From Polytrichum commune (lineage: Eukaryota > Streptophyta > Polytrichopsida > Polytrichales > Polytrichaceae), in NCBI GenBank assembly GCA_950295325.1, contig OX485803.1, positions 46,827,554-46,891,553 of the forward strand: a stretch of 64,000 nucleotides of DNA, read 5' to 3'. Positions 1 through 46,348 of this stretch are shown one piece after another. Position 1 is the first letter of the stretch. Each line of letters opens with the position of its first letter. The notes beneath the pieces are model-generated. The model had not been told where the DNA came from. It saw only the letters and a program-made list of their open reading frames with translations, and ran no database searches. The position numbers and the translations under genes were made by a program.

Positions 1-3000
1 AACGCTCAATGTCGTCTGGGCAAAAGACAAAGTCCGTGCGCTTCATAGATTGGAGTTTGTAATGATGCCACATACTGGTGTAGGTCGGCGCAGGGACGCT
101 CTTATTATTAGTGACGATTCTTGCGGTGCACTTCTTCTTCGTGCCCGCATGATTAGCCCAACAAGACTTCCCAGACGTATAGGGTATGCGGGCAATATGC
201 CAAAAAGAGACATCTACTTTGGTTTCTTGCACGGCAGTGACACGCTGGAAACCAAGTCCTGCAGGTGAAGGCACTTGAACCTCTTGTACAGAGGGGGAAG
301 ACTCCTCAATGATAGTGGGTAGTGTTTCTGGTTGAGATCGAGTGACACGCTTATCGGGGGGAGGGCGAGAGAAGTTCACGGTATCGGGGCGGTGGGTCTC
401 GCCATCATCACCAATTGGAGTGTCTGGTCTTCGCTTCTGCGATCCAAACACCTCGGCGCCCTCAAGGTGTGGATCGCGAGTGCAAAATTCTTCCCCACCG
501 GACATGTCAAGCAAGACCTTCTGCAACACTGTGGGGTCGCCAGTACGCTGAGCTCGACGTTGAGCACCCCTGAGCTTTAGTTCTTCTTTGGTTGGACCAT
601 CTCCGCCAATTCCACCTTTAAGGAACTGGTAGTATGCAAGAACTTGTAAGAAGGCGCGAATGTAGTCGTCAACCGTAGCCACGTATAGATCTCCACCCTT
701 GTTGCCGGAGGCTTGAAGCCACTTGTTGTGGACGGACTCCGCAAGATTGCACGACGGCATCTCGGCCAATTGGTCTTGGGTTAAAACCTTTTCCTGATTG
801 GAGAAATCAAGTATTAATATAAATGTACAGAGAGAGGAAATCGAATCCAAGAAAAACCAATAATGAATTATAAAGGAGATGTACCAGTTCCATGAAACCA
901 CCCCATTGAAGGTAGCGGAAGTGCCAAAAAGCAAGCCAGAGCTGAAGATGCTTGAGACCGTCCTCACTTGTATAATTCGATGACGCCCACCAAGCCTTGA
1001 TAGCTAGGTACCTAGTCTCAGCCTCTTCCATAGATGACGCATTTCGATATTGAAGGCAAAGATGTCTATGTTGGTCTTGTAACTCATGCTTTATATACGA
1101 TTTTGTATGTTTTTCGAGTGATTGTTTCCAATGGAAAAAACAAGTGCGCTCACGACCCTCCATTGGAACTTTGGGATCCCCTGAACCACACACAATGCGA
1201 ACAGCGTTCCAATTGGCTTGGGCACTGTCCGCCATGAAGCCTATAAAGTTTGGATGTGGGATACCGTGTCGGGCCATGACGTGGTTGAGGTTCTGCCAGA
1301 AGAGAACTTGGGCATCCTTATCCTCCGATTGGAAATCACAACATGAAATGGTCATGACCCGTTGATAAGTCCCATCGTACACATGAGCGGCCATGGTGGT
1401 CCACCCTTTGACCCGCTTCACGTGATCGGACATCATCCACGCGTTCTCCAGGTCCCCACCCGGTTGCATCCGACGAACCAAATCCACTCCACTTCCAGGA
1501 CCAACCTCCGACATCTTGAAGACGAACACCTTGTCTGTATCGTCACCTTGTCCTGGGAATTGGTTCCGTTGGACGTAGGCCCAATTGCTAACGCCTCGGA
1601 GCTTCGCGATGCCATCCATAACACCAAACCTCCGCAAATATTTGAAAGAGGTAACCTTAGAGCGAAGGTTTGGGGAATTCAACTCTCTACAGCTCTCAAA
1701 AACAGGTTCAAGCTCTTTTAAAGAGAAGAGACGGTGTGTGTCATTATCGCCAGAAAGGAGAAACTCACCAACAATGTCCTTGCTAGCTTAAAGGACGATC
1801 TTGCTGTGGGTGGCTTGAGGCGTACGTTCAACGTGCTCCTCAAGAAGTGCATTGATACGCTTCCGACTGTCTCTGCAGTCTCCAACCTTCACTGGATGTT
1901 GATGAGAACCGAGATGAATGCAGGCTCTTTGGGATGACTCCTTCCCATGGACGTAGAAGATTTTGGCCTCGCATAGTGCAATGCATTTGGGAGGCTCTTT
2001 ACAAATCCTGCAAACAAGAGTAGATCCAGATGGCACAATGCCAAAGAGAGGGAAAGGATCTTTAGTGAAACCTTCAAATTCTGTGTCATTGACCTTAGAG
2101 GTACGATGGGCGCGTTGAAGGTAATCACAACTCGGGTTTTGGCATTGGAGATGGCCAACACAGGTAGAGGAACAAAATGCAAGGCCAACGTCGTTTGTAA
2201 TGTTGGTGGTTTGAGTCTTAGTCCAAACATGGCCATCATATTGCTTGTCCATGCCGTCCAACGACTTGGCCCTGGTTTGAGATGAAGAGACTTCTGCTGC
2301 AGGGAGGACAAATAACTGGGTGCCATCGAAACGAGGGGGAAGGTGATTAACTTCTTGGATTTTGATTTTATCGTAATCTATTTTCTTGAGGACGTTCTTA
2401 CTACCGGGCATAGAGCCAAGACGACGAAGACATTGAACAATAGTTTGAGGAGGTTTAGATGTAGGGACCGAAGTAGTTGAAGGGACAGAGCTAGATGGAG
2501 AAGGCGTTACGTAGGATGCAAAGGGAAACAAATGAGGGGAATCATGGACAACAGCCTTATGCACTGGTACATCTTCACTCGAAGAATCAGACAAGTCTAT
2601 AACGTTGTCTACACCAGGCTCGGTCTTGACGCTTATTACCGGGGGTGTGCTAAAGGCAACAGTGGATGATCGAAGAGGAGGAAGGATTTCTGTTGACACT
2701 CCCATCTGAGAATCTGGCCAGCCACAAACCCTATACTTTCCCGCGCCAAGCTCCCACACTACATTGCCATTGTCAGTTACCTTGGAGGTCTCATGGAAGG
2801 TATGAACGAGCAATCCAGTATCAGGATGGTAGATCTCACGCTCTACCCATATTGTACTAGCTTTCAAAGAGAACCTAATGCTAAGATGAAGCTCCGAGAC
2901 AACAACAATACCTTGTGCACCAATGGGGAATATAATAGGGACCCCGATGCCATGTGAACGAAGTTCGGCCATCTCAGAGACGGGAGGAAGAATTGAGGTG

Positions 3001-3008
3001 GAAGCCAT
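1..3008 (-). pseudogene. MULE-type DNA transposase, one premature stop, 3' end beyond window
   Basis: Exon 1 runs 3008-885, a 90-bp GT-AG intron 884-794 follows, and exon 2 runs from 793 off the window edge, open throughout. Start: ATG at 3008 (MASTSILPPV). Residues about 255-375 hold a Cys/His zinc-binding region of WRKY/GCM1 type (CVGHLQC, CQNPSC, then HLGSHQHP), the usual DNA-binding part of plant MULE transposases. The transposase core follows, with FMADSAQANWNAVR (second catalytic Asp) and CFFHW (the family C-x2-H). The frame is identical on both sides of one TAA at 1790-1788, and the 35 codons after it (ASKDIVGEFLLSG...) read as normal family sequence, so this is a single nonsense change in an otherwise intact gene. 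Residues 127-139 carry a sumoylation-like VKTE and a SUMO-interacting-like VIDL followed by acidic/Ser residues. Divergent from the gene starting at 3328. Confidence 0.85.
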
Positions 3009-3327
3009 GAAGGCAGAGAAAGCAAACGTGAAGGAACAAAGATGCAAAGATGCATAGAGAAGGAGAATGGTGATGATGATGAAGTTATAAACAAATACGC
3101 ATGAATATCAGGAAGGAGACAAAATTGTCAGGCATCCTAAAAAAAGATACCCCTAATTACAAAGATGGTTGTCAGATAGTAAAGCGCGCCTCCCATCGGG
3201 AGGTATTGCAATTATATACTGAGAAGAATGCGATTGCTCACTTTCTTTCCAATGTGTGAGTTTGATGTGGTGAGGTTGTGGAAAGGAAATAGAACGAATA
3301 GGTCTGAATTGCGGGAGGGTTGAACAC
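3009..3327. promoter_or_regulatory. Divergent intergenic region between transposase and accessory gene
   Basis: These 319 bp separate the transposase ATG (3008, minus) from the ATG at 3328 (plus), so both promoters and 5' UTRs should lie here if the two genes belong to one element. No TATA box or repeated motif was assigned with confidence. Confidence 0.45.
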
Positions 3328-4327
3328 ATGAAGGAAATAGGCAATTCACAACCTCTGACAACGGAACCATCTAAGAAAAAGAAGAGGAGGCGATCGTCTA
3401 CACATTACACTGATAAGAAGAGAAAGACAGTGAGGACACAAAAGTCACAGGCAAGGAAAGCGCCAATCGAGGGCCGTGGGACGCCTGAGGATTTGAGCCA
3501 AAGCATAAAGGACCTGCGGAAACCTTCGTGGAGGCTAGACTGTGGGATTCGGCCTTTTCATTTATCACCGATTGTAGAAGAGGCGGACGGAAGTAAAGCG
3601 CAACCAATGGCAGAAGTGGAGGAGTTGGGAAACGACAGCATCCAAGAGGACTCACGCGAAGAGACAAACTCTACAAGTGTCGTACGTATTCTTCGGGTTC
3701 TCCATATATTCAGTTGTTTGAGCACATAATAAAAATGGTAGAACATATTCAACTGTGAAACAACTTTTCTTTTAGATATTATGGTTTGTCATCATTGTTA
3801 TAAACATTGTTTTATCTTAAATATAGGAAGAAGGGGGGAGTGGAGATAGTGGAAATATCTACGAAGAAGACAACAAGGAGGTAGCACAACAAATTGAGAA
3901 GGCGTTAGAAGAGCGAGAACTGATGTCGGGACAACCAACGATTCAAGCAAGAGAAAAAATGAAGGTGTCCAAGAGGAAAGCGGCAAAGGAAGATCTGAAA
4001 TCAAATTTGTTGGGAGGCCGCGAAAGAGCTGAAGGAGGAGACCCATGCGCAGAAACCCTAAGTGTGGATGTTGTGACCCCTGCTTCAAGATTTCAGCGAA
4101 GCAAGGTGGGCGGAACACAACAAACATCAAGGCGAGGGCGTGGCCGCGGGAGAGGAATGGCGCAAGTAAACCTCGGAGATTCGAGAAGCACTCCAATAAC
4201 GCCGACAGAGGACGGGACCTCGGAAGATAGTGGCGCCAATATAGGGGCTTCAGTGGAGGGCATACTCCAAATTCTGGTAAGGTGTCGGGATCTCGGCCAA
4301 GCTATGTTCGCCAACGTTTTTGCTTAA
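3328..4327 (+). CDS. Basic RG-rich protein; probable N-terminal exons of the ParB-like gene
   Basis: Exon 1 is 3328-3681 (118 codons, donor GTC|GTACGT). Exon 2 begins at 3827 after AAATATAG, in phase. Exon 2 can be read to a TAA at 4327 (284 aa in all), or can be spliced at ATTCTG|GTAAGG (ends 4276). The spliced form would join in phase to the acceptor at 12415 across an 8.1-kb intron. The product is low-complexity and charged: KKKKRRR at residues 16-22 with further basic clusters to 40 (likely nuclear localisation), an acidic stretch near 119-150, and an RRGRGRGRG tract at about 220-228 like GAR or AT-hook-type nucleic-acid-binding tails. No enzyme family is recognised. No internal stop is seen. 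It could be an independent small gene; I favour it being the 5' part of the 12415-15998 gene. Confidence 0.6.
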
Positions 4328-4518
4328 TTTCTATCACCTTGATTTCTCATAGTATTTGGAATATCAGCTTGACTTGCTTTCGGCCTTGTCCTGATTTGGG
4401 TTTAGGAACATGTCAGGAAAGGTATGTTTGTGCTTGAAAAATCAAAAGGTTATGTGCACATCATGTTGCTCTCGGCCTTGTCTCATTTTGTGTAGTGCAC
4501 AAGAATGAGCTAGGGGAA
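4328..4518. other. Lead-in to the palindrome array
   Basis: Non-coding. From about 4420 it resembles the array spacer (gtttgtgcttgaaaaatc), but the first palindrome is only at 4519. Confidence 0.5.
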
Positions 4519-7500
4519 GAGGCCTCGGATCCGAGGCCTCATATTTGTGTAAGTTTGAGTATGTGAAAGGTAGGGTTTTGAGAGAGGCGAGGTTCTTGAT
4601 TTCTCAAACAAATGGAATGTCGACTTTCTTGCTTTCTTGATTCTTTGCTCTCGGCCATTTCTTCTATTGTGTAGTGCATAAGTGGGAGCCATAGGAAGAG
4701 GCCTCGGATCCGAGGCCTCTTATTTGTGGGTAGGTTTGTGCTTGAAAAATCAAAATGTTATGTGCACATCAATTGCTCTCGGCCTTGGCTCGTTTTGTGT
4801 AGTGCACAAGAACGAGCTAGGGGAAGAGGCCTCGGATCCGAGGCCTCATATTTGTGTAAGTTTGAGTATGTGAAAGGTAGGGTTTTGAGAGAGGCGAGGT
4901 TCTTGATTTCTCAAACTAATGGAATGTCGACTTTCTTGCTTTCTTGATTTCTTGCTCTCGGCCATTTCTTCTATTGTGTAGTGCATAAGTGGGAGCCATA
5001 GGAAGAGGCCTCGGATCCGAGGCCTCTTATTTGTGGGTAGGTTTGTGCTTGAAAAATCAAAATGTTATGTGCACATCAATTGCTCTCGGCCTTGTCTTGT
5101 TTTGTGTAGTGCATAAGAAAGAGCTAGGGGAAGAGGCCTCGGATCCGAAGCCTCATATTTGTGTAAGTTTGAGTATGTGAGAGGTAGGGTTTTGAGAGAG
5201 GTGAGGTTCTTGATTTCTCAAACTAATGGAATGTCAACTTTCTTGCTTTCTTGATTCTTTGCTCTCGGCCATTTCTTCTATTGTGTAGTGCATAAGTGGG
5301 AGCCATAGGAAGAGGCCTCGGATCCGAGGCCTCTTATTTGTGGGTAGGTTTGTGCTTGAAAAATCAAAATGTTATGTGCACATCAATTGCTCTCGGCCTT
5401 GGCTCGTTTTGTGTAGTGCACAAGAACGAGCTAGGGGAAGAGGCCTCGGATCCGAGGCCTCATATTTGTGTAAGTTTGAGTATGTGAAAGGTAGGGTTTT
5501 GAGAGAGGCGAGGTTCTTGATTTCTCAAACTAATGGAATGTCGACTTTCTTGCTTTCTTGATTTCTTGCTCTCGGCCATTTCTTCTATTGTGTAGTGCAT
5601 AAGTGGGAGCCATAGGAAGAGGCCTCGGATCCGAGGCCTCTTATTTGTGGGTAGGTTTGTGCTTGAAAAATCAAAATGTTATGTGCACATCAATTGCTCT
5701 CGGCCTTGTCTTGTTTTGTGTAGTGCATAAGAAAGAGCTAGGGGAAGAGGCCTCGGATCCGAAGCCTCATATTTGTGTAAGTTTGAGTATGTGAGAGGTA
5801 GGGTTTTGAGAGAGGTGAGGTTCTTGATTTCTCAAACTAATGGAATGTCAACTTTCTTGCTTTCTTGATTCTTTGCTCTCGGCCATTTCTTCTATTGTGT
5901 AGTGCATAAGTGGGAGCCATAGGAAGAGGCCTCGGATCCGAGGCCTCTTATTTGTGGGTAGGTTTGTGCTTGAAAAATCAAAATGTTATGTGCACATCAA
6001 TTGCTCTCGGCCTTGGCTCGTTTTGTGTAGTGCACAAGAACGAGCTAGGGGAAGAGGCCTCGGATCCGAGGCCTCATATTTGTGTAAGTTTGAGTATGTG
6101 AAAGGTAGGGTTTTGAGAGAGGCGAGGTTCTTGATTTCTCAAACTAATGGAATGTCGACTTTCTTGCTTTCTTGATTTCTTGCTCTCGGCCATTTCTTCT
6201 ATTGTGTAGTGCATAAGTGGGAGCCATAGGAAGAGGCCTCGGATCCGAGGCCTCTTATTTGTGGGTAGGTTTGTGCTTGAAAAATCAAAATGTTATGTGC
6301 ACATCAATTGCTCTCGGCCTTGTCTTGTTTTGTGTAGTGCATAAGAAAGAGCTAGGGGAAGAGGCCTCGGATCCGAAGCCTCATATTTGTGTAAGTTTGA
6401 GTATGTGAGAGGTAGGGTTTTGAGAGAGGTGAGGTTCTTGATTTCTCAAACTAATGGAATGTCAACTTTCTTGCTTTCTTGATTCTTTGCTCTCGGCCAT
6501 TTCTTCTATTGTGTAGTGCATAAGTGGGAGCCATAGGAAGAGGCCTCGGATCCGAGGCCTCTTATTTGTGGGTAGGTTTGTGCTTGAAAAATCAAAATGT
6601 TATGTGCACATCAATTGCTCTCGGCCTTGGCTCGTTTTGTGTAGTGCACAAGAACGAGCTAGGGGAAGAGGCCTCGGATCCGAGGCCTCATATTTGTGTA
6701 AGTTTGAGTATGTGAAAGGTAGGGTTTTGAGAGAGGCGAGGTTCTTGATTTCTCAAACTAATGGAATGTCGACTTTCTTGCTTTCTTGATTTCTTGCTCT
6801 CGGCCATTTCTTCTATTGTGTAGTGCATAAGTGGGAGCCATAGGAAGAGGCCTCGGATCCGAGGCCTCTTATTTGTGGGTAGGTTTGTGCTTGAAAAATC
6901 AAAATGTTATGTGCACATCAATTGCTCTCGGCCTTGGCTTGTTTTGTGTAGTGCATAAGAAAGAGCTAGGGGAAGAGGCCTCGGATCCGAAGCCTCATAT
7001 TTGTGTAAGTTTGAGTATGTGAGAGGTAGGGTTTTGAGAGAGGTGAGGTTCTTGATTTCTCAAACTAATGGAATGTCAACTTTCTTGCTTTCTTGATTCT
7101 TTGCTCTCGGCCATTTCTTCTATTGTGTAGTGCATAAGTGGGAGCCATAGGAAGAGGCCTCGGATCCGAGGCCTCTTATTTGTGGGTAGGTTTGTGCTTG
7201 AAAAATCAAAATGTTATGTGCACATCAATTGCTCTCGGCCTTGGCTCGTTTTGTGTAGTGCACAAGAACGAGCTAGGGGAAGAGGCCTCGGATCCGAGGC
7301 CTCATATTTGTGTAAGTTTGAGTATGTGAAAGGTAGGGTTTTGAGAGAGGCGAGGTTCTTGATTTCTCAAACTAATGGAATGTCGACTTTCTTGCTTTCT
7401 TGATTTCTTGCTCTCGGCCATTTCTTCTATTGTGTAGTGCATAAGTGGGAGCCATAGGAAGAGGCCTCGGATCCGAGGCCTCTTATTTGTGGGTAGGTTT

Positions 7501-7917
7501 GTGCTTGAAAAATCAAAATGTTATGTGCACATCAATTGCTCTCGGCCTTGTCTTGTTTTGTGTAGTGCATAAGAAAGAGCTAGGGGAAGAGGCCTCGGAT
7601 CCGAAGCCTCATATTTGTGTAAGTTTGAGTATGTGAGAGGTAGGGTTTTGAGAGAGGTGAGGTTCTTGATTTCTCAAACTAATGGAATGTCAACTTTCTT
7701 GCTTTCTTGATTCTTTGCTCTCGGCCATTTCTTCTATTGTGTAGTGCATAAGTGGGAGCCATAGGAAGAGGCCTCGGATCCGAGGCCTCTTATTTGTGGG
7801 TAGGTTTGTGCTTGAAAAATCAAAATGTTATGTGCACATCAATTGCTCTCGGCCTTGTCTTGTTTTGTGTAGTGCATAAGAAAGAGCTAGGGGAAGAGGC
7901 CTCGGATCCGAAGCCTC
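4519..7917. repeat. Palindrome array 1: 307-bp units, 614-bp higher-order repeat
   Basis: Twenty-three copies of a 22-bp palindrome (GAGGCCTC on each side of GGATCC) alternate at 179- and 128-bp spacing, giving a 307-bp unit. From 4682 there are 11 units. Two variants, A (palindromes intact) and B (second palindrome changed to GAAGCCTC), alternate A-B-A-B-A-B-A-B-A-B-B, a 614-bp higher-order repeat whose copies look nearly identical, so amplification was recent. Each unit also carries two CTCTCGGCC motifs. The short open frames in the units are by-products of the repetition and are not called as genes. Confidence 0.95.
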
Positions 7918-8039
7918 ATATTTGTGTAAGTTTGAGTATGTGAGAGGTAGGGTTTTGAGAGAGGTGAGGTTCTTGATTTCTCAAACTAATGGAATGTTAG
8001 CTTTCTTCCATTTTTGATTCCTTGCTCTCTGCCTTGTGC

Positions 8040-8061
8040 CCCACGGGTGAACGCCCGTGGG
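8040..8061. repeat. Hairpin CCCACGGGTG / CGCCCGTGGG
   Basis: A 10-nt stem (one G/T mismatch) with a 2-nt loop lies at the junction between arrays 1 and 2. A perfect version is at 11116-11137 and a decayed one at about 11509-11531, each followed by GCCATGTAAC. Confidence 0.8.
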
Positions 8062-8141
8062 CCATGTAACAAGTAACTTGGTTAGGCATGTCTTTATGAG
8101 GCACTTTGGTTGGTTCTGAGTATGTAAACTAGTTTGTGTGT

Positions 8142-10049
8142 GAGGCCTCGGATCCGAGGCCTCTCGGCTGAGGCCACTTGAGGTTTTTTGATTCAAAGTA
8201 TAACTTGTATGAATGAGGCACTTTGCTTGTTTTTGAGGATGTAAACTAGTTTGTGAATGAGGCCTCGGATCCTAGGCCTCTTTTATGTGTTCCAAAACAA
8301 GTGTACGGAAGAGGCACTTTGGTTTGTTTTGAGTATGTAAAGTAGTTTGTGAATGAGGCCTCGGATCCGAGGCCTCTTTTATGTGTTCCAAAACAAGTGT
8401 ACGGAAGAGGCACTTTGGTTTGTTTTGAGTACGTAAACTAGTTTGTGAATGAGGCCTCGGATCCGAGGCCTCTTTTATGTGTTCCAAAACATGTGTACGG
8501 ATGAGGCACTTTGGTTTGTTTTGAGTATGTAAAGTAGTTTGTGAATGAGGCCTCGGATCCGAGGCCTCTTTTATGTGTTCCAAAACAAGTGTACGGATGA
8601 GGCACTTTGGTTTGTTTTGAGTATGTAAACTAGTTTGTGAATGAGGCCTCGGATCCGAAGCCTCTTTTATGTGTTCCAAAACATGTGTACGGATGAGGCA
8701 CTTTGGTTTGTTTTGAGGATGTAAACTAGTTTGTGAATGAGGCCTCGGATCCGAGGCCTCTTTTATGTGTTCCAAAACATGTGTACGGATGAGGCACTTT
8801 GGTTTGTTTTGAGTATGTAAAGTAGTTTGTGAATGAGGCCTCGGATCCGAGGCCTCTTTTATGTGTTCCAAAACATGTGTATGGATGAGGCACTTTGGTT
8901 TGTTTTGAGTATGTAAAGTAGTTTATGAATGAGGCCTCGGATCCGAGGCCTCTTTTATGTGTTCCAAAACATGTGTACGGATGAGGCACTTTGGTTGGTT
9001 TTGAGTATGTAAACTAGTTTGTGTGTAAGGCCTCGGATCCGAGGCCTCTCGGCCGAGGCCACTTGAGGTTTTGTGATTCAAAGTATAACTTGTATGAATG
9101 AGGCACTTTGCTTGTTTTTGAGGAGGTAAACTAGTTTGTGAATGAGGCCTCGGATCCTAGGCCTCTTTTATGTGTTCCAAAACAAGTGTACGGAAGAGGC
9201 ACTTTGGTTTGTTTTGAGTATGTAAACTAGTTTGTGAATGAGGCCTCGGATCCGAGGCCTCTTTTATGTGTTCCAAAACATGTGTACGGATGAGGCACTT
9301 TGGTTTGTTTTGAGTATGTAAACTAGTTTGTGAATGAGGCCTCGGATCCGAGGCCTCTTTTATGTGTTCCAAAACAAGTGTACGGAAGAGGCACTTTGGT
9401 TGGTTTTGAGTATGTTAACTAGTTTGTGAATGAGGCCTCGGATCCGAGGCCTCTTTTATGTGTTCCAAAACATGTGTACGGATGAGGCACTTTGGTTTGT
9501 TTTGAGTATGTAAAGTAGTTTGTGAATGAGGCCTCGGATCCGAGGCCTCTTTTATGTGTTCCAAAACAAGTGTACAGAAGAGGCACTTTGGTTGGTTTTG
9601 AGTATGTAAACTAGTTTGTGAATGAGGCCTCGGATCCGAGGCCTCTTTTATGTGTTCCAAAACAAGTGTACGGATGAGGCACTTTGGTTTGTTTTGAGTA
9701 TGTAAAGTAGTTTGTGAATGAGGCCTCGGATCCGAGGCCTCTTTTATGTGTTCCAAAACAAGTGTACGGATGAGGCACTTTGGTTTGTTTTGAGTATGTA
9801 AACTAGTTTGTGAATGAGGCCTCGGATCCTAGGCCTCTTTTATGTGTTCCAAAACAAGTGTACGGAAGAGGCTCTTGGTTGGTTTTGAGTATGTAAACTA
9901 GTTTGTGTGTAAGGCCTCGGATCCGAGGCCTCTCGGCCGAGGCCACTTGAGGTTTTTTGATTCAACGTATAGCTTGTATGAATGAGGCACTTTGCTTGTT
10001 TTTGAGTATGTAAACTAGTTTCAAAATGAGGCCTCGGATCCGAGGCCTC
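8142..10049. repeat. Palindrome array 2: about 96-bp units
   Basis: Twenty copies of the same palindrome (a few with one base changed, such as GATCCTAG or a leading AAGG) recur at 96 bp from 8259 to 9816. Steps of 117 bp occur at 8142-8259, 9027-9144 and 9911-10028, where the palindrome is followed by TCGGCCGAGGCC. The spacer (ttttatgtgttccaaaac, gaggcactttggtt) is unrelated to that of array 1. Confidence 0.95.
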
Positions 10050-10300
10050 TTTTTAGTGCCCTCGATGAGCAGTCCCCAGGGAGTGGCTCCCGGGACTGCG
10101 AATGTTTAAACAGGCATAACTTCCTTGAATTTTGCCCAAATGGAGCAAGTGAGGTGTCCATCGGCATCTACATTTCACGTAGATGACGATAGAGTGGTTG
10201 ATTGTTAGATTCGGAGACAACACGTGGAAGATATGGAGGTCTGAAGCTGCCGGGGGGGGGAAATGTGTTTTGTTAAGTGCATATGTAGGAGCTAGGAGAA
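10050..10300. repeat. Duplicated segment with GCAGTCCC hairpin and G-run, copy 1
   Basis: This segment recurs at 10651-10906. At its start is a hairpin (10069-10099: GCAGTCCC pairing with GGGACTGC, inner GGGAG/CTCCC). About 150 bp on is a G9 run (10252-10260). It interrupts the palindrome array. Confidence 0.85.
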
Positions 10301-12245
10301 GAGGCCTCGGATCCGAGGCCTCTTTTATGTGTTCCAAAACTAGTGTACGGATGAGGCACTATGGTTGGTTTGGAGTACGTAAATTACTTTGTGTGTGAGC
10401 CCTCGGATCCGAGGCCTCTCAGCCGAGGCCACTTGAGGTTTTTTGATTCAACGTATAGCTTGTATGAATGAGGCACTTCGCTTGTTTTTGAGTATGTACA
10501 CTAGTTTCAAAATGAGGGCTCGGATCCGAGGCCTCTCGGCCGAGGCCACTTGAGGTTTTTTGATTCAACGTATAGCTTGTATGAATGAGGCACTTTGCTT
10601 GTTTTTGAGTATGTAAACTAGTTTCAAAATGAGGCCTCGGATCCGAGGCCTCCTTTTAGTGCCCTCGATCAGCAGTCCCCTGGGAGTGGCTCCCGGGACT
10701 GCGAATGTTTAAACAGGCATAACTTCCTTGATTGTTGCCCAAATGGGGCAAGTGAGGTGTCCATCGGCATCTACATTTCACGTAGATGACGATAGAGTGG
10801 TTGATTGTTAGATTCGGAGACCACACGTGGAAGATATGGAGGTCTGAAGCTGCGGGGGGGGGGGGGGATTGTATTTTGTTAAGTGCATAAGTAGGAGCTT
10901 TGGGAAGAGGCCTCGGATCCGAGGCCTTTTTTTTGTGTCAAGGTTTGTGCTTGAAAAATCAAAATGTTAGGTTCATTTTTGAATTCTCTCGGCCATTTTC
11001 TGTAGTATGTATTTCATAAGGAGGGGCATTCAGAAGAGGCCTCGGATCCGAGGCCTCATTTTTGTGTCAAGGTATGTGCATGAAAAGTTAGGTTTTAACA
11101 TGATCAAATGTGTGCCCCACGGGTGAACACCCGTGGGCCATGTAACATGTAACTTGGGTAGGATTTAGCATCATCACGGGGAGATGTGTCCATGTCAAAT
11201 ATTTTTAAAAATTATGATTTTTTTTCTCTATATTCATAACCATTGATTATACCTTTTGGTTTTTTTTTTGAAATTTTTTGTCATCTTCATTTTTCCTAGT
11301 AATTGTTTTAGTTGAATTCTGCGTCATTCTAGGTAGAAATGGTATGTTTTCTAGAAAAATATGATCATAAAATTTGGTCATGATATTTTACTCCGTAATA
11401 GATATCATGTATATCTACCTTCCAAAAAAAATTGAGAAAATTTTGACCCATTTTGGTGATGCAACTTGGCAATGGAGTGACCTCCCCTGGAACATCATCA
11501 AATGTGAACCTCACGGGTGAACACCCATGAGCCATGTAACAAGTAAATTGGTTAGGTTTTAAAATCATCAAGGAGGGGCATTTGGAAGAGGGCTCGGATC
11601 CGAGGCCTCATTTTTTAGTCAGGTTGTGTGCTTGAAAAATGAAAACGTTAGGTTCATTTTTGAATTCTCTCGGCTATTTTCTGTAGTATGTATTTCATAA
11701 GGAGGGGCATTCAGAAGAGGCCTCGGATCCGAGGCCTCATTTTTGTGTCAAGGTATGTGCATGAAAAGTTAAAATGTTATGCTCATTTTAAAATGCGCTT
11801 GGCCCTATTGTTTTGGGTAGTGCATAAGTAGGTATTTTGTGAAGAGGCCTCGGATCCGAGGCCTCATTTTTGTGTCAAGGTATGTGCTTGAAAAATAAAA
11901 ATCTTATGTTCATTTTCGAATGCTCTCGGCCTTCTTGTTTTGGGTAGTGAATAAGTATGTGTTTTGGGAAGAGGCCTCGGATCCGAGGCCTCATGTTTGT
12001 GTCAATTTTATGCTAGAAAAATCAAAATGTTATGTTCGTGTAAGATTGCTCTCGGCCTTCTTGTTTTTGGTACTACATGAGTAAGAGGTTTGTGAAGAGG
12101 CCTCGGATCCGAGGCCTCATTTTGGAGACAATGTATGGGCTTTAAAAGTCAAACTACTATGTTCACATAACATTTCTCTCGGCCTTTTTCTTTTGGGTAG
12201 TGCATAAGGAGGAGGTAGGAAAAGAGGCCTCGGATCCGAGGCCTC
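10301..12245. repeat. Palindrome array 3: degenerate, mostly about 127-bp spacing
   Basis: Twelve palindromes start at about 10301, 10397, 10514, 10631, 10907, 11036, 11588, 11717, 11844, 11971, 12097 and 12224. The last five intervals are 126-129 bp. The spacers are more diverged than in array 1 but keep the tctcggcc motif and the phrase gtgcttgaaaaat. The second copy of the hairpin/G-run segment (hairpin 10672-10702, G14 at 10854-10867) and an A/T-rich palindrome-free stretch (11160-11500) lie inside. Confidence 0.9.
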
Positions 12246-12414
12246 TCATTCGTAGGTAGGTTAGTGCTAGAGTTTACCACTTGACTTAGCATTCGGCCAT
12301 TTCCATTTGTAGTTTGCTCTCGGCCTTGTATTGTTTTTGTGAGGATTTGTTTCTTTATAGTTACGAAGTTATTGACTTTTCTTTGTGAAATTCTCATTTT
12401 CTCCATGTTCTTAG
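12246..12414 (+). promoter_or_regulatory. Array-to-exon junction: intron end or promoter/5' UTR
   Basis: It contains two more cggcc motifs (gcattcggcc, gctctcggcc near 12290-12321) and ends in a pyrimidine-rich tract plus TTCTTAG, a good splice acceptor just before GATATG. So this is either the 3' end of an 8.1-kb intron or the promoter/UTR of a gene starting at ATG 12418. Confidence 0.55.
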
Positions 12415-15400
12415 GATATGGACTCTTCACATGTTGCGCAATCGCAACCCCAATCTGGAGAGGATGTTGTTCTTGCGGCCCCCGCGGTTGAAGTTGAAGC
12501 TATGCAGGTTGAGAGTCTCAATTCGCAGGGTCCATTACAAGTAGAGGTGAGTTGGATAGTTGTTGAATAATTTGTTGAGCAAGTTTTTTGAGTTCTAGCT
12601 TTCTAAGCATGGTTTTATTATTTGTGTTTTTGTTAGGCTCTCGCAATGAGCGAAGATGCCGTTCAAGCAGTTGCCGACACCGATCCCGTGGTGTGTGAGC
12701 TTGAGCTTCGGAAATCACAAAAGGAGGACTCCATTGGTGTTATCCAACGCCTCCGGATTAAGCCAACCTGTAAGTCCCGCTTATCCATTCCTTTGTGCCG
12801 CTTGAGAGCCCTCCCTCTCGTCCGTCCTATAAGTGAGGTTGAGGTGCAGCGCTTGGAATGTGAATTTGTAATGGGATACCGAGAGGGTGATCGGGTTCTT
12901 TACGTATCTGCTTTCAATGACGTTCCCGTGGACCTCCCCATTCCCTTTGGCATTATGGCCTCTTGGAGCCCTCTCTGGCAAGAGGCCTCCGCAGAATTTG
13001 ATGCCAAGCTCAAGGAGGATCCGGATCTTGCACATTTCGCCGGGAAGATGTTCTTCGTCTGGGAAGGCAATCATCGTCTCACCGCTTGGTGGAGACACAT
13101 CAATAACCACCACGCTGATGATAAGAGTTGGCATATCTCGGTGGATTGCATTGTTGTTGACCCTAGAGGATACACCGATGTATTTCTCAATGCCATGAGC
13201 GACATTAATTGGTAAGCTTACTCATTTTTTTCATTCATTTTTCATTTTTGTTTCAATTCTTTTCCATTATTTTCACCTCACGTTCCTCACATATTTTCTC
13301 TCAGGTCAACCGAGCATGATTATGTCAAGGCAAATATTCCGGCCAAGCTCCTTCGAATCCGCACTTTTGGAAGGTTAGAGTTGTCCACCTTCAAGGATCT
13401 CATATCGCCATCTGACTACAAAGCATGCGAGAAGATAAAGGAGAGTCGTCCAACTTGGTACACCTTGACCGCGGATGTGTTCGTTAAGTTTCTTTACAAG
13501 GTATGGTTTTGCATTCAATCATTTAGAGCTTCCAACATAGATAATTTCCATGCCGATTATATGAACTCACAAGATCATTTCTTGCAGAGAGACATTTCGG
13601 CTCAAACAGACCTTGCAGTGAGGCATTACCGTGAGACCACACCCATTGCGGAGAGGTCGGCCACTGAGATTTGGAATGTTATGACCAAGGCCCAGGAGAG
13701 GACAATCAAAAGTATTCGGGCCCGTTCTTTTGAGAAGTACATATCCGTTGCACACCCTGACAATGAAGAGGATTTCTTTCATGAGGTACTCTTTTAAACT
13801 CAAATCACTTTTGAACGCAATTCATCCAAATCACTCTTCAACTCTATTATTCTTTTGAATTCAAATCATTTTTATTTTGTGCACAGATTGACCGTCATTT
13901 TAATGAGTTCTCTTCGACGGAAATGACAATTGAAAAATTGCAAAAAATTGTCACATGCCCGGTCGAAGCTTCGTTCAAAGCTAAGTGGCTTTGCTGGTGG
14001 AACGCCCCCCTTCGTGAAAGGTTAGATAACAAGTTCCCCGTCGACAAGCCTATGAGGAAGAGGGCTTTGGACGACTGGCTACACAAGGCGTCCTTCTGGG
14101 CTCAGGTAAATCCATTCTTCGGCCTTCTTCATTTTTATTTTCCTCTATTCCATTTATCTCATATCTAATTATCTCCCTCTCTGCAGTTGGAGAAGGAAGT
14201 CGCGGTTGAAATTGAGACCTTAGAGGAGAGCCTCTCCGTCGACATTGATTGGGACGCATCAGAAACTATCTTGTGCCCTCGTGAATACGTTGATCATTGG
14301 CGGACAGTCCATATATCGTTCCCTCCGTTGCTCCCTCTCTTGCCCCCTCTGTTACTCCATCTGCATTTCATCCACAATCTCTTGCCACTCCATCTCATAG
14401 TGGCACTTCTCTCCTCTCTTTGCCTCGCAAGAGGAAGGCCGCTCTCTTGGATACCAGTGCCACCTCTTCGGATGCCCCTAACACGCTTTCCCTCATCGAA
14501 AATGTGGACATGGTTCAACTAATGCTGGATTCCGAGGTTGCCGGAGGTCCCCTCCCCGCATATACCCGCATCCAAGAGTTCATTGTCAAGGTTTGTATAC
14601 TTGCCATCGTCAATTCTCAATTTTTTTTCCTTTGCTTTGCTTATTTTTTTCCTTCTTGTTTTCTCATGAAGTTTCAATTGCAGGTTGGGGCAGGTCGTTC
14701 CCGTGTGAACACCTCGACTACAACTCACAAGGACCTCGATTTGCTCTTCGATGACATTCCCGAGAATTTGCCGGTGCCGAATATCTCCACCGATGTTCCT
14801 GCTTGGAACAAGCTCCATGAATCATACTATGAGTGTATTTTTGCATTTGCGAAATCTAACCTCTATGATCATGGTGTCCTTGTTCTTGCCCATTATGCGA
14901 GTGCCAGTGTTTCTAGGAGTATTTTCGATTGGGCACACACTTATGACTTCTACGTCGCGGAAGATTGGTTTGGAATGAATGATTTGGACCTCCAATCTCC
15001 CGTTGTTCCCTCTAGAGTGGTAAGCAAGTCTCCCTCTCTTCCCCTTCCGTATTGCTTATCATTTCAATTTCAATTCAATTTCAATTTCATTTCATTTCAA
15101 TTCAATTTTATTTTTATTGTTGCAGACTCGGAAGTTCAGCATCAAAGTTCTTGTTCGTGTTAACTCCGTTCTTAGAGTGCGGGAGGAGGCCATACAAGAG
15201 TATGGTTACAACCTCCAACGAGATGGATGGTTGAATACCTTCACCGATGAAAACAGCCAGGCGATGCGCAGTGATGGGGACCTTGGCGAGGTGCCCATGA
15301 GAAGCATCCTATTTTTTTTTCCATCCTTCTCGCTATTCTCACCGACAAGAATGATGTTATTATGGACTGGCAGTGTGGTGTAGGTACGCCTTGTTTTTCA

Positions 15401-15998
15401 ACTTCATCCTTACTTTGAATTTTCTATTATTTTTCCTTGACTAGTTTCCATACTAACATTTTACCTCTCGTTGCTTTAGGTGGTTCGATTACAGCATGTC
15501 GCTCCCTTGAGCGGCATATTGTGGCCCTTGAGAGTGACCCCGTTATTTTCAATTCACTCCTACTCCCCATGCGCGATCCCCAGCCTGCGCGTATATCTCG
15601 CTCAGTTACCGCACCGTCTACATCTATCTTTGATCCTCCTCAAAAGATGACCAAGAGGGCATTCGGATTCCTTTGTGCGTAAGTTTGCTTTTTATATTTT
15701 GCCATGTTTGCCTTGATTTCAAATTCTCATTTTCTAGTGTCATCATGTTTCTAATCATTTTGCTTGGGTGTTTAGAGAGCCAGCGGAGGTCGCAGTCATT
15801 CGTCGAGACATGTTTTCAAGTCCTCCGAAGCCGTTTGAGCTTCCCCCGTATGCTAGTGCAATGGCGGATTGTTTTGCGAAGGCGGAGTCCCCATCTCCTC
15901 CTCGCGTTCGTCATTTCTCGCGTGGGACACGAAATCTTTTCTTGTTAGAAGCAAATGAAGGTGAGGAGAGTGATAGGGAATGTTCTCCAAGCCCTTAG
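12415..15998 (+). pseudogene. ParB-like domain plus degenerate DNA-methyltransferase-like protein
   Basis: Ten exons: 12415-12546, 12637-13211, 13305-13500, 13588-13785, 13887-14105, 14187-14590, 14684-15019, 15126-15383, 15480-15678, 15776-15998; all introns GT-AG. Counting from ATG 12418, residues about 92-235 resemble the ParB/sulfiredoxin-like fold: an entry strand LSIPLCRLR, a PISEVEVQRL helix, then VWEGNHRLTAW at 184-194, the counterpart of the ParB G-x-x-R box. Later, LDLLFDDIPENLP (about 590) and VIMDWQCGVGGSITACRSL (about 770) sit in the order motif IV then motif I seen in beta-class N4/N6 DNA methyltransferases. However, DPPY is replaced by DIPEN, so catalysis is doubtful. PRKRK in exon 6 is a possible NLS. 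Exon 6 (after VDH, near 14293) and exon 8 (T-run near 15311) are each one base short of frame. The family assignment is by eye. Confidence 0.62.
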
Positions 15999-16053
15999 TT
16001 TATCATTTTGATTTTGGAGATTATAACTCCGTTTGTTGTTGTTATCCGGCTTT

Positions 16054-16059
16054 AATAAA
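16054..16059 (+). terminator. AATAAA polyadenylation signal
   Basis: AATAAA lies 56 bp after the TAG that ends the ParB-like gene, a normal distance for a near-upstream element. Confidence 0.6.
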
Positions 16060-17005: not shown

Positions 17006-17007
17006 AC
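16945..17007. repeat. CTCCGCT minisatellite, about 8 units
   Basis: The 7-bp unit CTCCGCT is repeated about six times exactly, with a CTCCAAT unit before and a CTACGCT unit after. Confidence 0.9.
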
Positions 17008-17199
17008 GCTCACATACTTGAGTTTCCCCTCCTTGTTACGCTCCCTGATCGACCGACCTTCATCAACTATTCTCCGGTCAAAAGCTCCCCCTCTTCGCGA
17101 TACCTTCGCCCTCAGTCTGACGACCCTCGTCCTCGCAACCCCTTCTCTGCTCACAAGCGATTGGGACTCTCGGCGGAAGCCTTTGAGGCCCTCGTGACC

Positions 17200-43500: not shown

Positions 43501-44888
43501 TTTACCTGTTGAGATGCATTACTCAGTTGAAGTTCAAGGTCATGCAATTTCTCCTTCTTCTCCAAAAACTCCTTGTCTTCTTCCATAATGGCAGGCTTGG
43601 TGCTTCCCCACTCATTTGTAACTGACTGCTTCAACTCCTTGAACATGCGGAGCAGATCACGACCTCCTTTTGCAGGTTGCACAGCTTCTTGAGGGGTTAT
43701 CATTGCACTGCCTTCTCCAAAAAGCTGCCGTGGAAGTTTCACAGCCCCATCCAGCATCCTGGATGCCATGTCGGTAGTTGGTTGCAGAGGCAACTTTCCC
43801 TGTATGTCAAGATTTCTGCATAATTTAGCACACAGGATAGAAATAAACATTCCTGCCAAAAACCCTGACCACTAATTACTCAGAACCTGTGACTAAGGCC
43901 CTTTACCTTCCAATAAAATACAATTGCTGCCTTATATAAGCCTTGGACCACAAATTTAGTACCTAAGTCCAACACTTTGCATTCACTCAAATTTCAGCAA
44001 AAAGAATTCCATGCACCTACTCTGTCCACTCTGCACACAAAACTGTTTCAAACAAGACAGAAAACTAACTTCAAGTGATCATACCCTGATGATGTCCCAA
44101 TTCCTTACCTCAGTTTGAAGGAATTTTCGGAGCTCGTCACTGTGCCGGAGAACATGGTGTGTAGCCAATCTGCCAAGGTACTTCTCCAATGCTAATCTTC
44201 GTTGTTCGATAAATTCCACCTTCTGCATCACTTGGCTCTCCACAACATTTTTGTCAGGTCGAGGTGGGATGAAGTACCCTCTGTAATGCTCGGCTAGTCG
44301 GTCAGCTAAAGTCACCACATCTTTAAACCGCCTCCTCACACTGAACTCCGAGGCGCCATAGGATACCATGTTGGTATGGGTTATGATTCTGTAAGTCACA
44401 TAAGAAGTTCCTCCTGGCACTAAAGAACCCCCCGGCTCCTGCACCGTCTGGGGATCCAACACTCTCACAGTCAAAGCCTCCGAGGACGACAACCTAGGGG
44501 ATGACGAGGAGAAGGAGGACGAAGAGGGATGGGCAGCACCCACGTCTCGATTATTACTGCTCCCGTTCGCAGCAGTATCCCCCCCCATGTAAGGTGAGAA
44601 AATCGCATCCGCATATGACGGCGGCTCGATCATGGTATCTCTGAAGCTGTTACTTCGGCCCGCAGCATCCTGGAACGGTTTCCTAAAACTGTTGATAATA
44701 GGTGGCTCGGGTTTTGTGGCCAGGGGATGAGACTCCTGTAGGGTTGAGTTCCCACTCGACATGGCACTTCGGTAATCACTCGTGGAAAAAAATGAGTGGG
44801 GATCATCTTCTAATGCCAAACTTTCCATCACATCCGTGGACGTGTAAAGCCGCGCCTGCTGCGCATCGTCCTCCTCAGAGCCCATCAT
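40516..44888 (-). CDS. SNX2: Sorting nexin, SNX2-type PX-BAR protein, copy A, 581 aa
   Basis: Exons 44888-44109, 43799-43506, 43173-42964, 42227-41967, 41322-41236 and 40629-40516, all phase 0, give 582 codons, close to Arabidopsis SNX2a/b. Residues 1-137 are an acidic, Ser-rich, probably disordered leader. The PX domain is about 139-258: SVRRRFKDV (185-188 is the phosphoinositide-binding RRRF), PPRPDK (208-213), RRLALEKYL. Exons 3-6 encode the Vps5-type BAR coiled-coil domain (about 330-570; KASRFYRESNSL, DELHEYLGLMQALQTAF, ERFDEERQRDFMNML). Family role: PX-BAR sorting nexins bind PI3P on endosomes and, as SNX1/SNX2 dimers, work with retromer in vacuolar-receptor and auxin-carrier recycling. 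Tandem paralogue at 48978-54213. Apparently intact. Confidence 0.95.
40752..41126 (+). mobile_element. MITE family R400 copy in SNX2-A intron 5
   Basis: Near-complete, TAAGGTAGATGTGTG to GACATGTCTATCTTA. Confidence 0.8.
41554..41940 (+). mobile_element. MITE family R400 copy in SNX2-A intron 4
   Basis: Starts TAAGGTAGATGG. The right end is decayed and stops about 27 bp short of exon 4, so the insertion lies very close to the donor site. Confidence 0.75.
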
Positions 44889-46348
44889 GCCTCCGGAAGC
44901 ACCAACCCTTTCTTCTTCTTCTTCTTCTTCTTCAACCCTCTTTCTCTGACTACTTTACCACAAACCCTAATTCAATGTCTCGAGAATGAAGCAAGCTCCA
45001 TTTCCTTCGACTTCACTTTGTCATGAACCAACCTGTGGCAAAGAAAAATCCACAGCATCACCTAAAACATCATACCATACCATATCCTTCAAAATAAATG
45101 TCAAACTCACATCTCAACAACAAAATAAAAATATTGACAAGCTCAGAATTAGGATAGAGTACTTAGTTTCTAGATTCTATCAAACAGGCGTACAAAAGTT
45201 AAGGCCACTCCAACAAGTGATGTTCCAAGATGAATCACGGCAATAAAAGCTCAAATACAAACTACTGCGACACATAAACCATCTACTCACATGCATAAAA
45301 AATGATTCTAGGTTTCATCAAACAGGTCAACGTGGAAAAAACGTCACGATTAAACCAGTTCGTTCACAATGAGCTTGGTTCTCCAGATAAGGAACAAAAC
45401 TATTCTTATTCTACAGATTCTGTACTCATGAAAGTGGAAAGTGATTGCGGTCCAAAAAACTCTCCATCATTAGAAATTTAACTTCCTAGAATGCACCCTT
45501 GATCCCAACCTAAGCCAGTGCATGATGATTTTTATTTACTTTTTATCTACCTTCACAGGACTCTCTGGCTCTTCCATCTCTGGGGCTGCCCTGGGTTCGA
45601 CTTGATGAAGAAACCTCGACTTCAATCCTTCATACCCCTGGGATTGCAACTAAAATTATTTGGGTGATTCATAGTTTGCCTACCCCTCCCAATGAATGAC
45701 CAATTAGGTCAACACCCCCAAAACCCTCACCTTTAATAGCAAACCCCACAGAAAAAATCCTCACGTAAATTTGAGCTTTCGATCGAGTAACCACAATCTG
45801 AGCTCGACCCTCCTCCGATTGCTGTGTCTGCTCCCCACAACCGCAGACTCCGAGACTGTCAGTTTTCCGGGCCTCCTCGCGTTGCAATCAAACTTATCAA
45901 GGCATTCCTATAGCCCGGGGATAGAAATCGCTCATGATGATGTCTTACCGGAGACACCAAATGCTTGAGCCGAGGTTTTTGAAACTTGGCGCAAAAATTT
46001 AGCACAAAACTACGTGCGTGAGATTCAACAGGGTTCCTTGTTGGTGCAAGACAGACATGATTTCTTCGACCCAAGGTGTCGGGCAACGGAGGAGACAGAA
46101 AAAATCCAGTGAGAGCAAATAGAGAGAGGTGAAATCTCCGTATTGGTAGATCTTAGAATATGGAAACTGCATTTTCTGAGGGGACTGAGGCTCCAAATTC
46201 TTCAAGAATCGTAGATGTTGGGTCCCTCTGTTGTTTGTAGATTTTGAGAAACATAAGAATCTTCAGGATGTGTAGAATCGAGGAGACACTGGAGAAAAAA
46301 GGGCGTGTGTAGAGTGGAGTGGAATGGAGTGGAGTGAAGGGCACCCTA
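44889..46348. promoter_or_regulatory. Upstream region of SNX2-A
   Basis: A (TTC)n tract is at about 44909-44932. AAACCCTAA (telo-box) at about 44963-44971 is close to the start codon. TTGCAATCAAACT near 45882 recurs upstream of SNX2-B near 55106, so promoter or 5' UTR sequence was duplicated with the gene. No other gene. Confidence 0.5.

What the first reader, a model, noticed from the sequence alone, without database searches (positions are those of the whole stretch)
1..16059. Candidate mobile system: MULE transposase, ParB/methyltransferase-like protein and a palindrome array
Seen: a MULE transposase gene diverges across 319 bp from a plus-strand gene whose product looks like a ParB-type domain joined to a beta-class DNA-methyltransferase-like region. 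About 55 copies of one 22-bp palindrome lie within that unit. Known: Arabidopsis VANDAL MULEs encode VANC proteins that bind short motifs repeated in the element and undo its silencing; bacterial ParB binds palindromic parS sites; fused ParB-methyltransferase proteins occur in phages and bacteria. Inference: the ParB-like protein may recognise the palindromes and act on methylation or silencing of its own element. I know of no described element with this set of parts.
Basis: partly seen in the sequence, partly recalled or inferred. Interest (0 to 1): 0.85.

Follow-up and report, generated by a model that had tools for sequence, protein, structure and literature searches.

The report
Moss transposon with self-recognising palindrome arrays
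A large jumping gene, probably in a moss, carries its own DNA-binding gene and tens of copies of one palindrome, and relatives in the same genome carry other palindromes that go with other versions of that gene, which suggests that each element recognises its own DNA, perhaps to escape silencing.

Summary
In detail: 55 palindromes (39 perfect; 0 in shuffles), and two genes diverging across exactly 319 bp. Both genes lie in one 18.8-kb transposon; near-identical ends with exact 10-bp target duplications were found in 7 of 11 copies examined. The window copy is broken in both genes.

Main new result: the palindrome follows the ParB-like gene, not the transposase. All 15 sampled upstream regions with ParB-like identity of 72% or more carry GAGGCCT-CG-GATC-CG-AGGCCTC. 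None of 17 at 69% or less does; 11 of those carry TCT-CG-GNNC-CG-AGA, mostly as ACCCTCT...AGAGGGT. Distant clades have further dyads; every array called has CG-N4-CG at its centre. Of 10 loci chosen before their upstream DNA was seen, 6 had such arrays (three of these are related), against 0 of 19 control slices.

I infer that the protein binds its own element's dyads; VANC-like anti-silencing is the likeliest use, untested. The C-terminal part resembles beta-class DNA methyltransferases with an odd motif IV (D-I-P-E). The ParB label has no significant profile support. ParB–methyltransferase accessory genes are already reported in algal transposons; I found no report of the arrays and the operator repertoire.

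The parts
1..3008 (-). Transposase gene (MULE-like by motif), start codon at 3008; its 3' part and the left end of the element lie outside the window to the left (L001)
   Evidence: ORFs; 30 of the 40 other hits at 97% or more have a 766-aa open frame (A2 read); the window copy has an in-frame stop at the 1787/1788 ORF border; dN/dS 0.027 between A2 and B1
3009..3327 (.). 319-bp divergent promoter interval; the 91% similarity between A2 and B1 ends close to here (window about 2989, by offset)
3328..3681 (+). Exon 1 of the ParB/methyltransferase-like gene (basic N-terminus); splice sites inferred by eye
   Evidence: tblastn to A2, C1, B1 and D; dN/dS 0.385 A2-C1
3827..4276 (+). Exon 2 (R/G-rich); inferred phase-0 donor at 4277
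   Evidence: dN/dS 0.42
4277..12414 (+). Inferred 8.1-kb intron holding the whole palindrome array (no transcript evidence; an alternative start at the ATG 12418 cannot be excluded)
   Evidence: donor and acceptor in phase
4519..12245 (.). Array of 55 copies of the 22-bp dyad GAGGCCTCGGATCCGAGGCCTC in tandem units of about 307, 96/117 and 127 bp
12415..13211 (+). Exons 12415-12546 and 12637-13211: ParB-like region with F-V-W-E-G-N-H-R-L signature
   Evidence: dN/dS 0.087-0.169 in the 8 of 10 pairs with a defined ratio
13305..14590 (+). Exons 13305-13500, 13588-13785, 13887-14105, 14187-14590 (borders by eye and frame): helical/linker region; about 617 bp lost at 14304 in this copy
14684..15996 (+). 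Exons 14684-15019, 15126-15383, 15480-15678, 15776-15996 (borders by eye and frame): beta-class methyltransferase-like domain; motif IV D-I-P-E at about 14753-14764, motif I DWQCGVG at about 15363-15383
   Evidence: dN/dS 0.067-0.205
17007..17028 (.). Right terminus CGCTCACATACTTGAGTTTCCC of the element
17029..17038 (.). Right copy of the 10-bp target duplication CTCCTTGTTA (left copy lies in L001)

Best explanation
This is a large MULE-type DNA transposon of a land plant, most likely a moss. Besides its transposase it carries a self-recognition system: a divergently transcribed gene for a ParB-like, methyltransferase-like protein, and tens of copies of that protein's own 22-bp operator, probably inside the gene's long first intron. 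The protein most likely binds the dyad as a symmetric dimer. It would contact an invariant CG-N4-CG core plus seven clade-specific outer bases, and so coat copies of its own clade only. The likeliest purpose is VANC-like anti-silencing: the bound protein keeps the promoter and intron free of host silencing marks, either by occupying the CpG core or by placing a non-host methyl mark. SHOWN: one unit with shared ends and target duplications; operator type co-segregates with the ParB-like gene and not with the transposase; operators are conserved while the repeat units around them turn over; the coding regions are under purifying selection; further clades have further operators with the same central geometry. 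INFERRED: binding, dimerisation, anti-silencing, and any enzymatic activity. My odds: recognition of the array by this protein about 0.85; anti-silencing as its main use about 0.5; active base methylation by it about 0.3.
For: Co-segregation in 32 loci: A dyad in 15 of 15 with ParB-like identity >=72% and 0 of 17 at <=69%, while the identity of the paired transposase, known for 9 and 14 of them, overlaps (80-94% vs 79-94%, pairs). De novo, the second group has TCTCGG-NN-CCGAGA (102 sites, 11 of 17 loci). Module exchange: A2-B1 transposase dS 0.217, but the ParB-like exon of A2 is saturated against B-type L026; A2-C1 transposase dS saturated, but 0.53 and 0.36 in methyltransferase exons and 0.80 in the ParB-like exon of C1's close relative L017; the high similarity of A2 and B1 stops near the transposase start. 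Operators in unrelated contexts: 14 contexts, 1.84 bits per position inside vs 0.49 and 0.35 outside (A); 19 contexts, 1.54 vs 0.30 and 0.28 (B). Clade D dyad AATCCCACGGATCCGTGGGATT. Motif-first test: two loci chosen from GGGTGCCGTTAACGGCACCC clusters, 2 of 2 held a ParB-like exon and a divergent transposase. ParB-first test: 6 of 10 loci had arrays, 0 of 19 control slices, and all 34 arrays called have CG-N4-CG. Mantel r 0.41, p 0.005 over 11 representatives. Purifying selection. Precedent for the mechanism: VANC proteins and tandem-repeat motifs that co-diverge, lying in introns and upstream regions (PMC5735166, passages and discussion read).
Against: The array lies beside or inside the gene, so physical linkage alone would give much of the co-segregation. 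Not every ParB-like copy has an array in the stretch sampled: 5 of 15 B loci, 2 of 2 D loci with 2 kb and 4 of 10 blind loci fail the test, and both F loci show at most one site. The six positive blind loci are not six independent cases: three of them (L094, L100, L101) have ParB-like exons 73-79% alike. E and G share nearly the same operator although their ParB-like exons are only 38% identical. The control slices are ordinary window DNA, not other tandem arrays. No profile or structure confirms ParB. Motif IV is D-I-P-E, not (D/N/S)PP(Y/F). No expression, binding or methylation data were available. CpG positions of the dyad show no clear excess or lack of decay.
Confidence: 0.5

Rival explanations
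1. The protein binds the array as an ordinary transcriptional or copy-number regulator of its own element (operator array, autoregulation or titration), without acting on silencing.
For: The array lies between the divergent promoter and the ParB-like exons; dyad operators with clade-specific arms are typical of repressor families (recalled). All recognition evidence applies equally.
Against: 55 sites over 7.7 kb exceed what a simple operator needs; a conserved methyltransferase-like domain (dN/dS 0.067-0.205) suggests more than binding.
Confidence: 0.22
2. The protein is a transposition cofactor: arrays act as internal assembly sites that gather the transposase or pair the ends.
For: Exact target duplications and long open frames in many copies suggest recent movement.
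Against: In A1 the operators lie only in the interior: 4519-12245 in the window, none with an exact core in the 8 kb to the left. They track the ParB-like gene, not the transposase.
Confidence: 0.13
3. The palindromes are passive satellite repeats that travel with the neighbouring gene; no protein of the element reads them.
For: Tandem arrays expand and are copied with their neighbour; linkage explains co-segregation.
Against: The dyad stays fixed in 14 and 19 mutually dissimilar contexts, and arrays in distant clades have the same central CG-N4-CG geometry; controls 0 of 19.
Confidence: 0.06
4. A host factor, or the transposase, reads the palindromes.
For: CpG-rich dyads could attract host methyl-CpG or CXXC-type factors (recalled knowledge).
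Against: Operator type ignores transposase identity, and one host factor would not explain many clade-specific outer sequences that correlate with ParB-like divergence.
Confidence: 0.09

Closest known systems
Arabidopsis VANDAL MULEs with VANC anti-silencing proteins (PMC5735166, passages and discussion; PMC10398659, abstract and outline only)
   Same: MULE-type element; accessory gene; short motif arrayed in tandem repeats in non-coding parts including introns; motif and protein diverge together; transposase more conserved
   Different: VANC21 motifs are short (YAGTATTAY) and arrayed in one orientation, not 22-bp dyads; VANC has DUF1985/DUF287, for which no Pfam hit was found here; anti-silencing untested here
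ParB-like plus DNA methyltransferase accessory gene of Ectocarpus Sola1-1_Ec32, with similar genes cited for green and red algal transposons (PMC12477816, passages)
   Same: Large DNA transposon, accessory gene on the strand opposite the transposase, ParB-like plus N4/N6 methyltransferase-like domains
   Different: Other transposase superfamily and lineage; no operator array or motif co-divergence appears in the passages I read; homology could not be tested because its sequence is not held
Prokaryotic ParB-parS and phage ParB-like proteins; phage DNA methylases
   Same: (D/E)-G-x-H-R signature by eye; palindromic targets (recalled); beta-class methyltransferase motif I region
   Different: No significant profile match for the ParB-like part; operators arrayed by the tens; eukaryotic, intron-containing

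Membership tests
Mutator-like elements (MULE) | Target duplication of 8-11 bp (PMC6446971, passage) | tested here: met
   10 bp exact in 7 of 11 copies, 9 of 10 bases in 1, one or both ends not located in 3
Mutator-like elements (MULE) | Terminal inverted repeats | tested here: met
   52 nt at 92% between the ends of A1, simple-sequence rich; outermost bases only partly inverted
Mutator-like elements (MULE) | DDE transposase of the MULE profile, SWIM zinc finger | tested here: inconclusive
   No Pfam MULE or SWIM hit; DGTY...D...CxxH and CxCx(19)CxH patterns seen by eye
ParB/Srx-fold proteins | Profile or fold match to ParB | tested here: not met
   No ParB hit in Pfam, PHROGs, NCBIfam or PDB (stray hits to other families, the best PF20608 Phage_tube_C E 0.00041, below its cut-off, for L108); hhalign best P 0.044, though in the expected register DGNHR/DGFHR; AlphaFold pLDDT 37, unusable
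Beta-class N6/N4 DNA methyltransferases | Motif I / SAM-binding region | tested here: met
   Weak but convergent: PHROG methyltransferase E 0.0032, PF01555 E 0.22 below cut-off, PDB 5hek/5hfj E 0.009, 19 of 19 phage hits annotated as methylases, best E 1e-3
Beta-class N6/N4 DNA methyltransferases | Catalytic motif IV (D/N/S)PP(Y/F) (recalled) | tested here: not met
   D-I-P-E in the window, A2, C1, L041, L042, L044, L045; D-I-P-K in L043, D-I-L-E in L046, D-V-P-E in L047 and L048; activity not claimed
VANC-type anti-silencing systems | Element-specific motif arrays that co-diverge with the accessory protein | tested here: met
VANC-type anti-silencing systems | Homology to VANC (DUF1985/DUF287) | tested here: not met
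   no such Pfam hit; works like, not member of
VANC-type anti-silencing systems | Loss of host silencing marks on target copies | not testable with these tools
   no methylation or expression data
ParB-methyltransferase transposon accessory genes of algae | Sequence homology to the algal proteins | not testable with these tools
   sequences not held; architecture alone agrees (PMC12477816, passage)

The most novel reading that the evidence does not exclude
One plant genome holds a large, diversified family of transposon self-recognition systems: about ten operators, some of them similar to each other, each a 22-bp dyad with an invariant CG-N4-CG core and each paired with its own ParB-like protein (with a methyltransferase-like domain where I looked in clades A and B). 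These act as orthogonal anti-silencing switches that read, shield or re-mark CpG sites of their own element. The cassette (N-terminal exons, array and ParB/methyltransferase exons) is exchanged between transposase lineages as a module.
Probability: 0.4. Interest if true: 0.92.

Novelty: new variant of a known kind. Interest (0 to 1): 0.82.

Why it matters
Natural protein-operator pairs of one family inside one genome would allow the recognition code to be read by comparison and tested at once by binding assays. If anti-silencing is shown, it would be a second system of the VANC type, with a protein that has no DUF1985/DUF287 match here, in a probable moss, and would give a testable role to the ParB-methyltransferase genes already seen in algal transposons. 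The invariant CpG core bears directly on how transposons contend with CpG methylation.

Tried and rejected
Structure prediction of the ParB-like exon (pLDDT 37) and of the methyltransferase region (pLDDT 33) failed, so no fold search was run. Profile searches for ParB in Pfam, PHROGs, NCBIfam and PDB gave no ParB hit. I built a comparison profile from YbdM and seven phage ParB-like proteins; hhalign gave no significant match. Scans of viral and prokaryotic contigs found no relative; tblastn of the ParB-like region against phages found none at E<=1. Clade F (L059, L060) showed no array in about 5 kb upstream. Clade D slices were taken at a fixed distance; two of four held 13 sites each and two held none; extra DNA for those two gave 1 and 0 sites. 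The genome search later placed the array of one of them further upstream; the other (L053) stays unresolved, since the listing stops before its contig. I considered that CpGs in the dyad might be protected from decay; one search gave no clear answer. Papers: nine searches; in their listings (titles and starts of abstracts) I saw no MULE with a palindrome array and a ParB/methyltransferase gene. The two references that PMC12477816 cites for algal cases (Iyer 2011; Petroll 2025) were not read. I rejected 'already known' because the array and operator repertoire are not in the passages read, and 'categorically new' because both halves of the idea have precedents.
Full report
OBSERVATION. The palindrome GAGGCCTCGGATCCGAGGCCTC occurs 55 times (up to 3 mismatches) in the window, all at 4519-12245, against 0 in 100 shuffles; 39 are perfect. 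It sits in three kinds of tandem unit (about 307, 96/117 and 127 bp). The genome has 1903 exact copies, and 0 of the reversed control. The two genes start 319 bp apart on opposite strands.

HOST. The genome (408 Mb, 64 contigs) has LEAFY genes (4 SAM_LFY matches), so it is a land plant or a near relative. The DNA-binding part in L040 reads YLFDLYEQC; from memory, aspartate at this place marks moss LEAFY. I call the host a probable moss; no tool named it.

ONE ELEMENT. Comparison with sister copy A2 (L002/L003) bounds the element at 1,812 bases left of window base 1 and at 17028. Ends are GGACGACACTTGTATGTGAGCG and CGCTCACATACTTGAGTTTCCC, with at most one mismatch where located in the pairs. 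Of 11 copies examined, 7 have an exact 10-bp target duplication, 1 matches in 9 of 10 bases, and in 3 one or both ends were not located. One of the 7 is a B-type element (L077/L078), so both types share the same ends. For two further elements (B1, C1) only the left end was found, with 1 and 2 mismatches, in the DNA fetched. Of 123 listed transposase hits, 75 have as nearest a listed ParB-like hit within 20 kb in divergent orientation, 1 convergent, 1 tandem, 46 none; random positions give a mean of 1.8 and at most 6 paired (both lists are capped, and 149 of 150 ParB-like places were used).

STATE OF THE WINDOW COPY. The transposase has an in-frame stop at the 1787/1788 border; 30 of the 40 other hits at 97% identity or more have a 766-aa open frame there. 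The plus-strand gene lost about 617 bp at 14304.

THE PLUS-STRAND GENE. Exons can be joined from 3328 to 15996 if the array is an 8.1-kb intron; donor and acceptor are in phase, but no transcript was available. The ParB-like part has the signature FVWEGNHRLTAW, matching by eye the DGFHR of phage ParB-like proteins. hhalign put it in that register with the most diverse alignment, but not significantly (P 0.044, probability 1.2%). The C-terminal part has a motif I region that matches DNA methyltransferases in four searches, weakly but at the same place. Motif IV reads D-I-P-E in most copies read, with D-I-P-K in L043, D-I-L-E in L046 and D-V-P-E in L047/L048: a departure from (D/N/S)PP(Y/F). dN/dS is 0.087-0.169 for the ParB-like exon in the 8 pairs with a defined ratio of 10 pairs tried, 0.067-0.205 for two methyltransferase exons, 0.027 for the transposase, and 0.39-0.42 for the N-terminal exons. 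The gene is thus maintained.

THE PALINDROME FOLLOWS THE PARB-LIKE GENE. B1 matches A2 at 91% over the left 4.8 kb, up to about the transposase start, but its array differs and its ParB/methyltransferase gene is 64-69% identical in DNA. C1 is the reverse: transposase side 77%, plus-strand gene 81%, A dyad present. I then fetched the 2 kb upstream of 32 ParB-like exons spread over identity. All 15 with identity of 72% or more carry the A dyad (3-13 sites); of 17 with 69% or less none does, even at 6 mismatches; the identities of the paired transposases, known for 9 and 14 of them, overlap (80-94% and 79-94%). For some long-spaced pairs, such as L020 and L017, I did not check that both genes lie in one uninterrupted element; B1, C1 and L077/L078 do not depend on pairing by distance alone (B1 and C1 were fetched whole; L077/L078 have both ends and the duplication). 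De novo counting in the 17 found one dominant inverted repeat, TCTCGG-NN-CCGAGA, 102 sites in 11 loci, mostly ACCCTCTCGG-NN-CCGAGAGGGT (L030 has AGGCT on one side). Synonymous distances agree with exchange of modules: A2-B1 transposase 0.217 while the ParB-like exon of A2 is saturated against B-type L026; A2-C1 transposase saturated while the methyltransferase exons are at 0.53 and 0.36 and the ParB-like exon of C1's close relative L017 at 0.80.

NOT JUST LINKAGE. The 233 A sites lie in 14 mutually dissimilar contexts: 1.84 bits per position in the dyad, 0.49 and 0.35 in the flanks. The 137 B sites (13 of 18 loci) lie in 19 contexts: 1.54 against 0.30 and 0.28. Sites were admitted with up to 5 mismatches, so part of this contrast is by selection. 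The B motif occurs once in the A set (in C1), the A motif never in the B set. The genome holds 1998 copies of the B pattern, 0 reversed controls.

MORE CLADES, ONE GEOMETRY. Clade D (ParB-like 60% to A; ten copies at 94% or more) has AATCCCACGGATCCGTGGGATT: 84 genome copies, 0 reversed controls. Of the 50 sites that one search lists, 41 lie within about 8 kb upstream of a D copy listed and 9 form one cluster elsewhere (C4:55128443-55129358). Clade E (six copies) has GGGTGCCGTAAACGACACCC in 1-6 copies per locus; no transposase was found in the 9 kb upstream held in L050. Searching with the E pattern (68 copies, 0 reversed controls) showed clusters of GGGTGCCGTTAACGGCACCC elsewhere. Two were fetched, and both held a ParB-like exon (38% and 41% to E) and a divergent transposase (best stretches 60% and 42% to A) with 14 and 11 dyads: clade G.

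BLIND TEST. From a search with the G exon I took ten further ParB-like copies, eight at 37-44% and two at 56-57% identity to G, and fetched only the 2.4 kb upstream. A procedure that knows nothing of CG (three or more mutually similar near-palindromes) found arrays in 6 of 10: L094 about GGTGTCTCGGGGCCGAGACAAC, L095 GGCATCTCGGATCCGAGATGCC, L096 about ATATTGGCGGTGCCGCCAATAC, L098 CCCTGTGCGTTAACGCACAGGG, L100 AGTGTTTCGGGCCCGAAACACT, L101 TGTGTCTCGGCACCGAGACACA; none in L092, L093, L097, L099. The ParB-like exons beside L094, L100 and L101 are 73-79% alike, so the six stand for about four separate groups. The same procedure gave 15 of 15 (A), 10 of 15 (B), 0 of 2 (D, 2-kb stretches), 3 of 3 (D and G, long stretches) and 0 of 19 control slices of the window to the right of the element. 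All 34 consensuses it produced have CG at positions 8-9 and 14-15 of the 22-bp dyad. Over 11 representatives, identity of the ParB-like exon correlates with operator similarity (Mantel r 0.41, p 0.005; operator strings typed by hand, made symmetric for some). E and G are an exception, with close operators but 38% identity. Presence of a transposase or methyltransferase exon beside the ten blind copies was not checked.

HOW IT LIKELY WORKS. Dyads of two helical turns, operator identity tied to one protein, and tens of sites in a non-coding stretch point to a dimeric DNA-binding protein that marks its own element. VANC proteins of Arabidopsis MULEs do this and remove silencing, and their motifs lie in tandem repeats in introns and upstream regions and co-diverge with the protein (PMC5735166, passages and discussion read). 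The invariant CpG pair fits an interaction with CpG methylation, but that is inference. Whether the methyltransferase-like domain still works is open.

PRIOR WORK. [quoted passage not shown] passages, part 1 of 2 of one section). The present case adds a MULE-like host element in a land plant, the operator arrays, their co-divergence, and the operator repertoire. In the MULE survey the word moss does not occur, and the table rows that I saw list no such accessory gene (PMC6446971, passages).

Noticed in passing
L006:1-1955: A separate 47-bp tandem repeat (about 42 copies, 93% matches) lies in the DNA fetched beside element C1.
   Followed up: no
outside the right end of A2 (A2 17971 and 19889), B1 15866, L096 about 259: A different repeat with the palindrome CTGTCCCGGGACAG recurs near several elements; a 387-bp stretch of A2 and B1 is 95% identical there.
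   Followed up: no
L098, positions about 1657-1721: A second, close-packed palindrome family (GGTTTGGGTCGCTCGACCCAAACT, 32-bp spacing) of other geometry beside the CG-N4-CG array.
   Followed up: no
L092, L093 and other hits with open frames of 306-348 aa: A ParB-like clade (about 56% to G) with long open frames and no array in 2.4 kb upstream in the two copies sampled; it may have lost the operators or keep them elsewhere.
   Followed up: partly
L021, L022 and B1 arrays: Some B-type arrays carry mainly one intact half-site (TTCCGAGAGGCTAG) in 75-bp units rather than full dyads.
   Followed up: partly
window 44079-44954, minus strand: The only open frame of 280 aa or more in 17500-64000 (291 aa) looks like a sorting-nexin PX-domain host gene by eye (name recalled, no profile run).
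   Followed up: no
G000:C4:55128443-55129358: A cluster of clade D operators with no clade D ParB-like hit listed nearby; possibly a non-autonomous copy.
   Followed up: no
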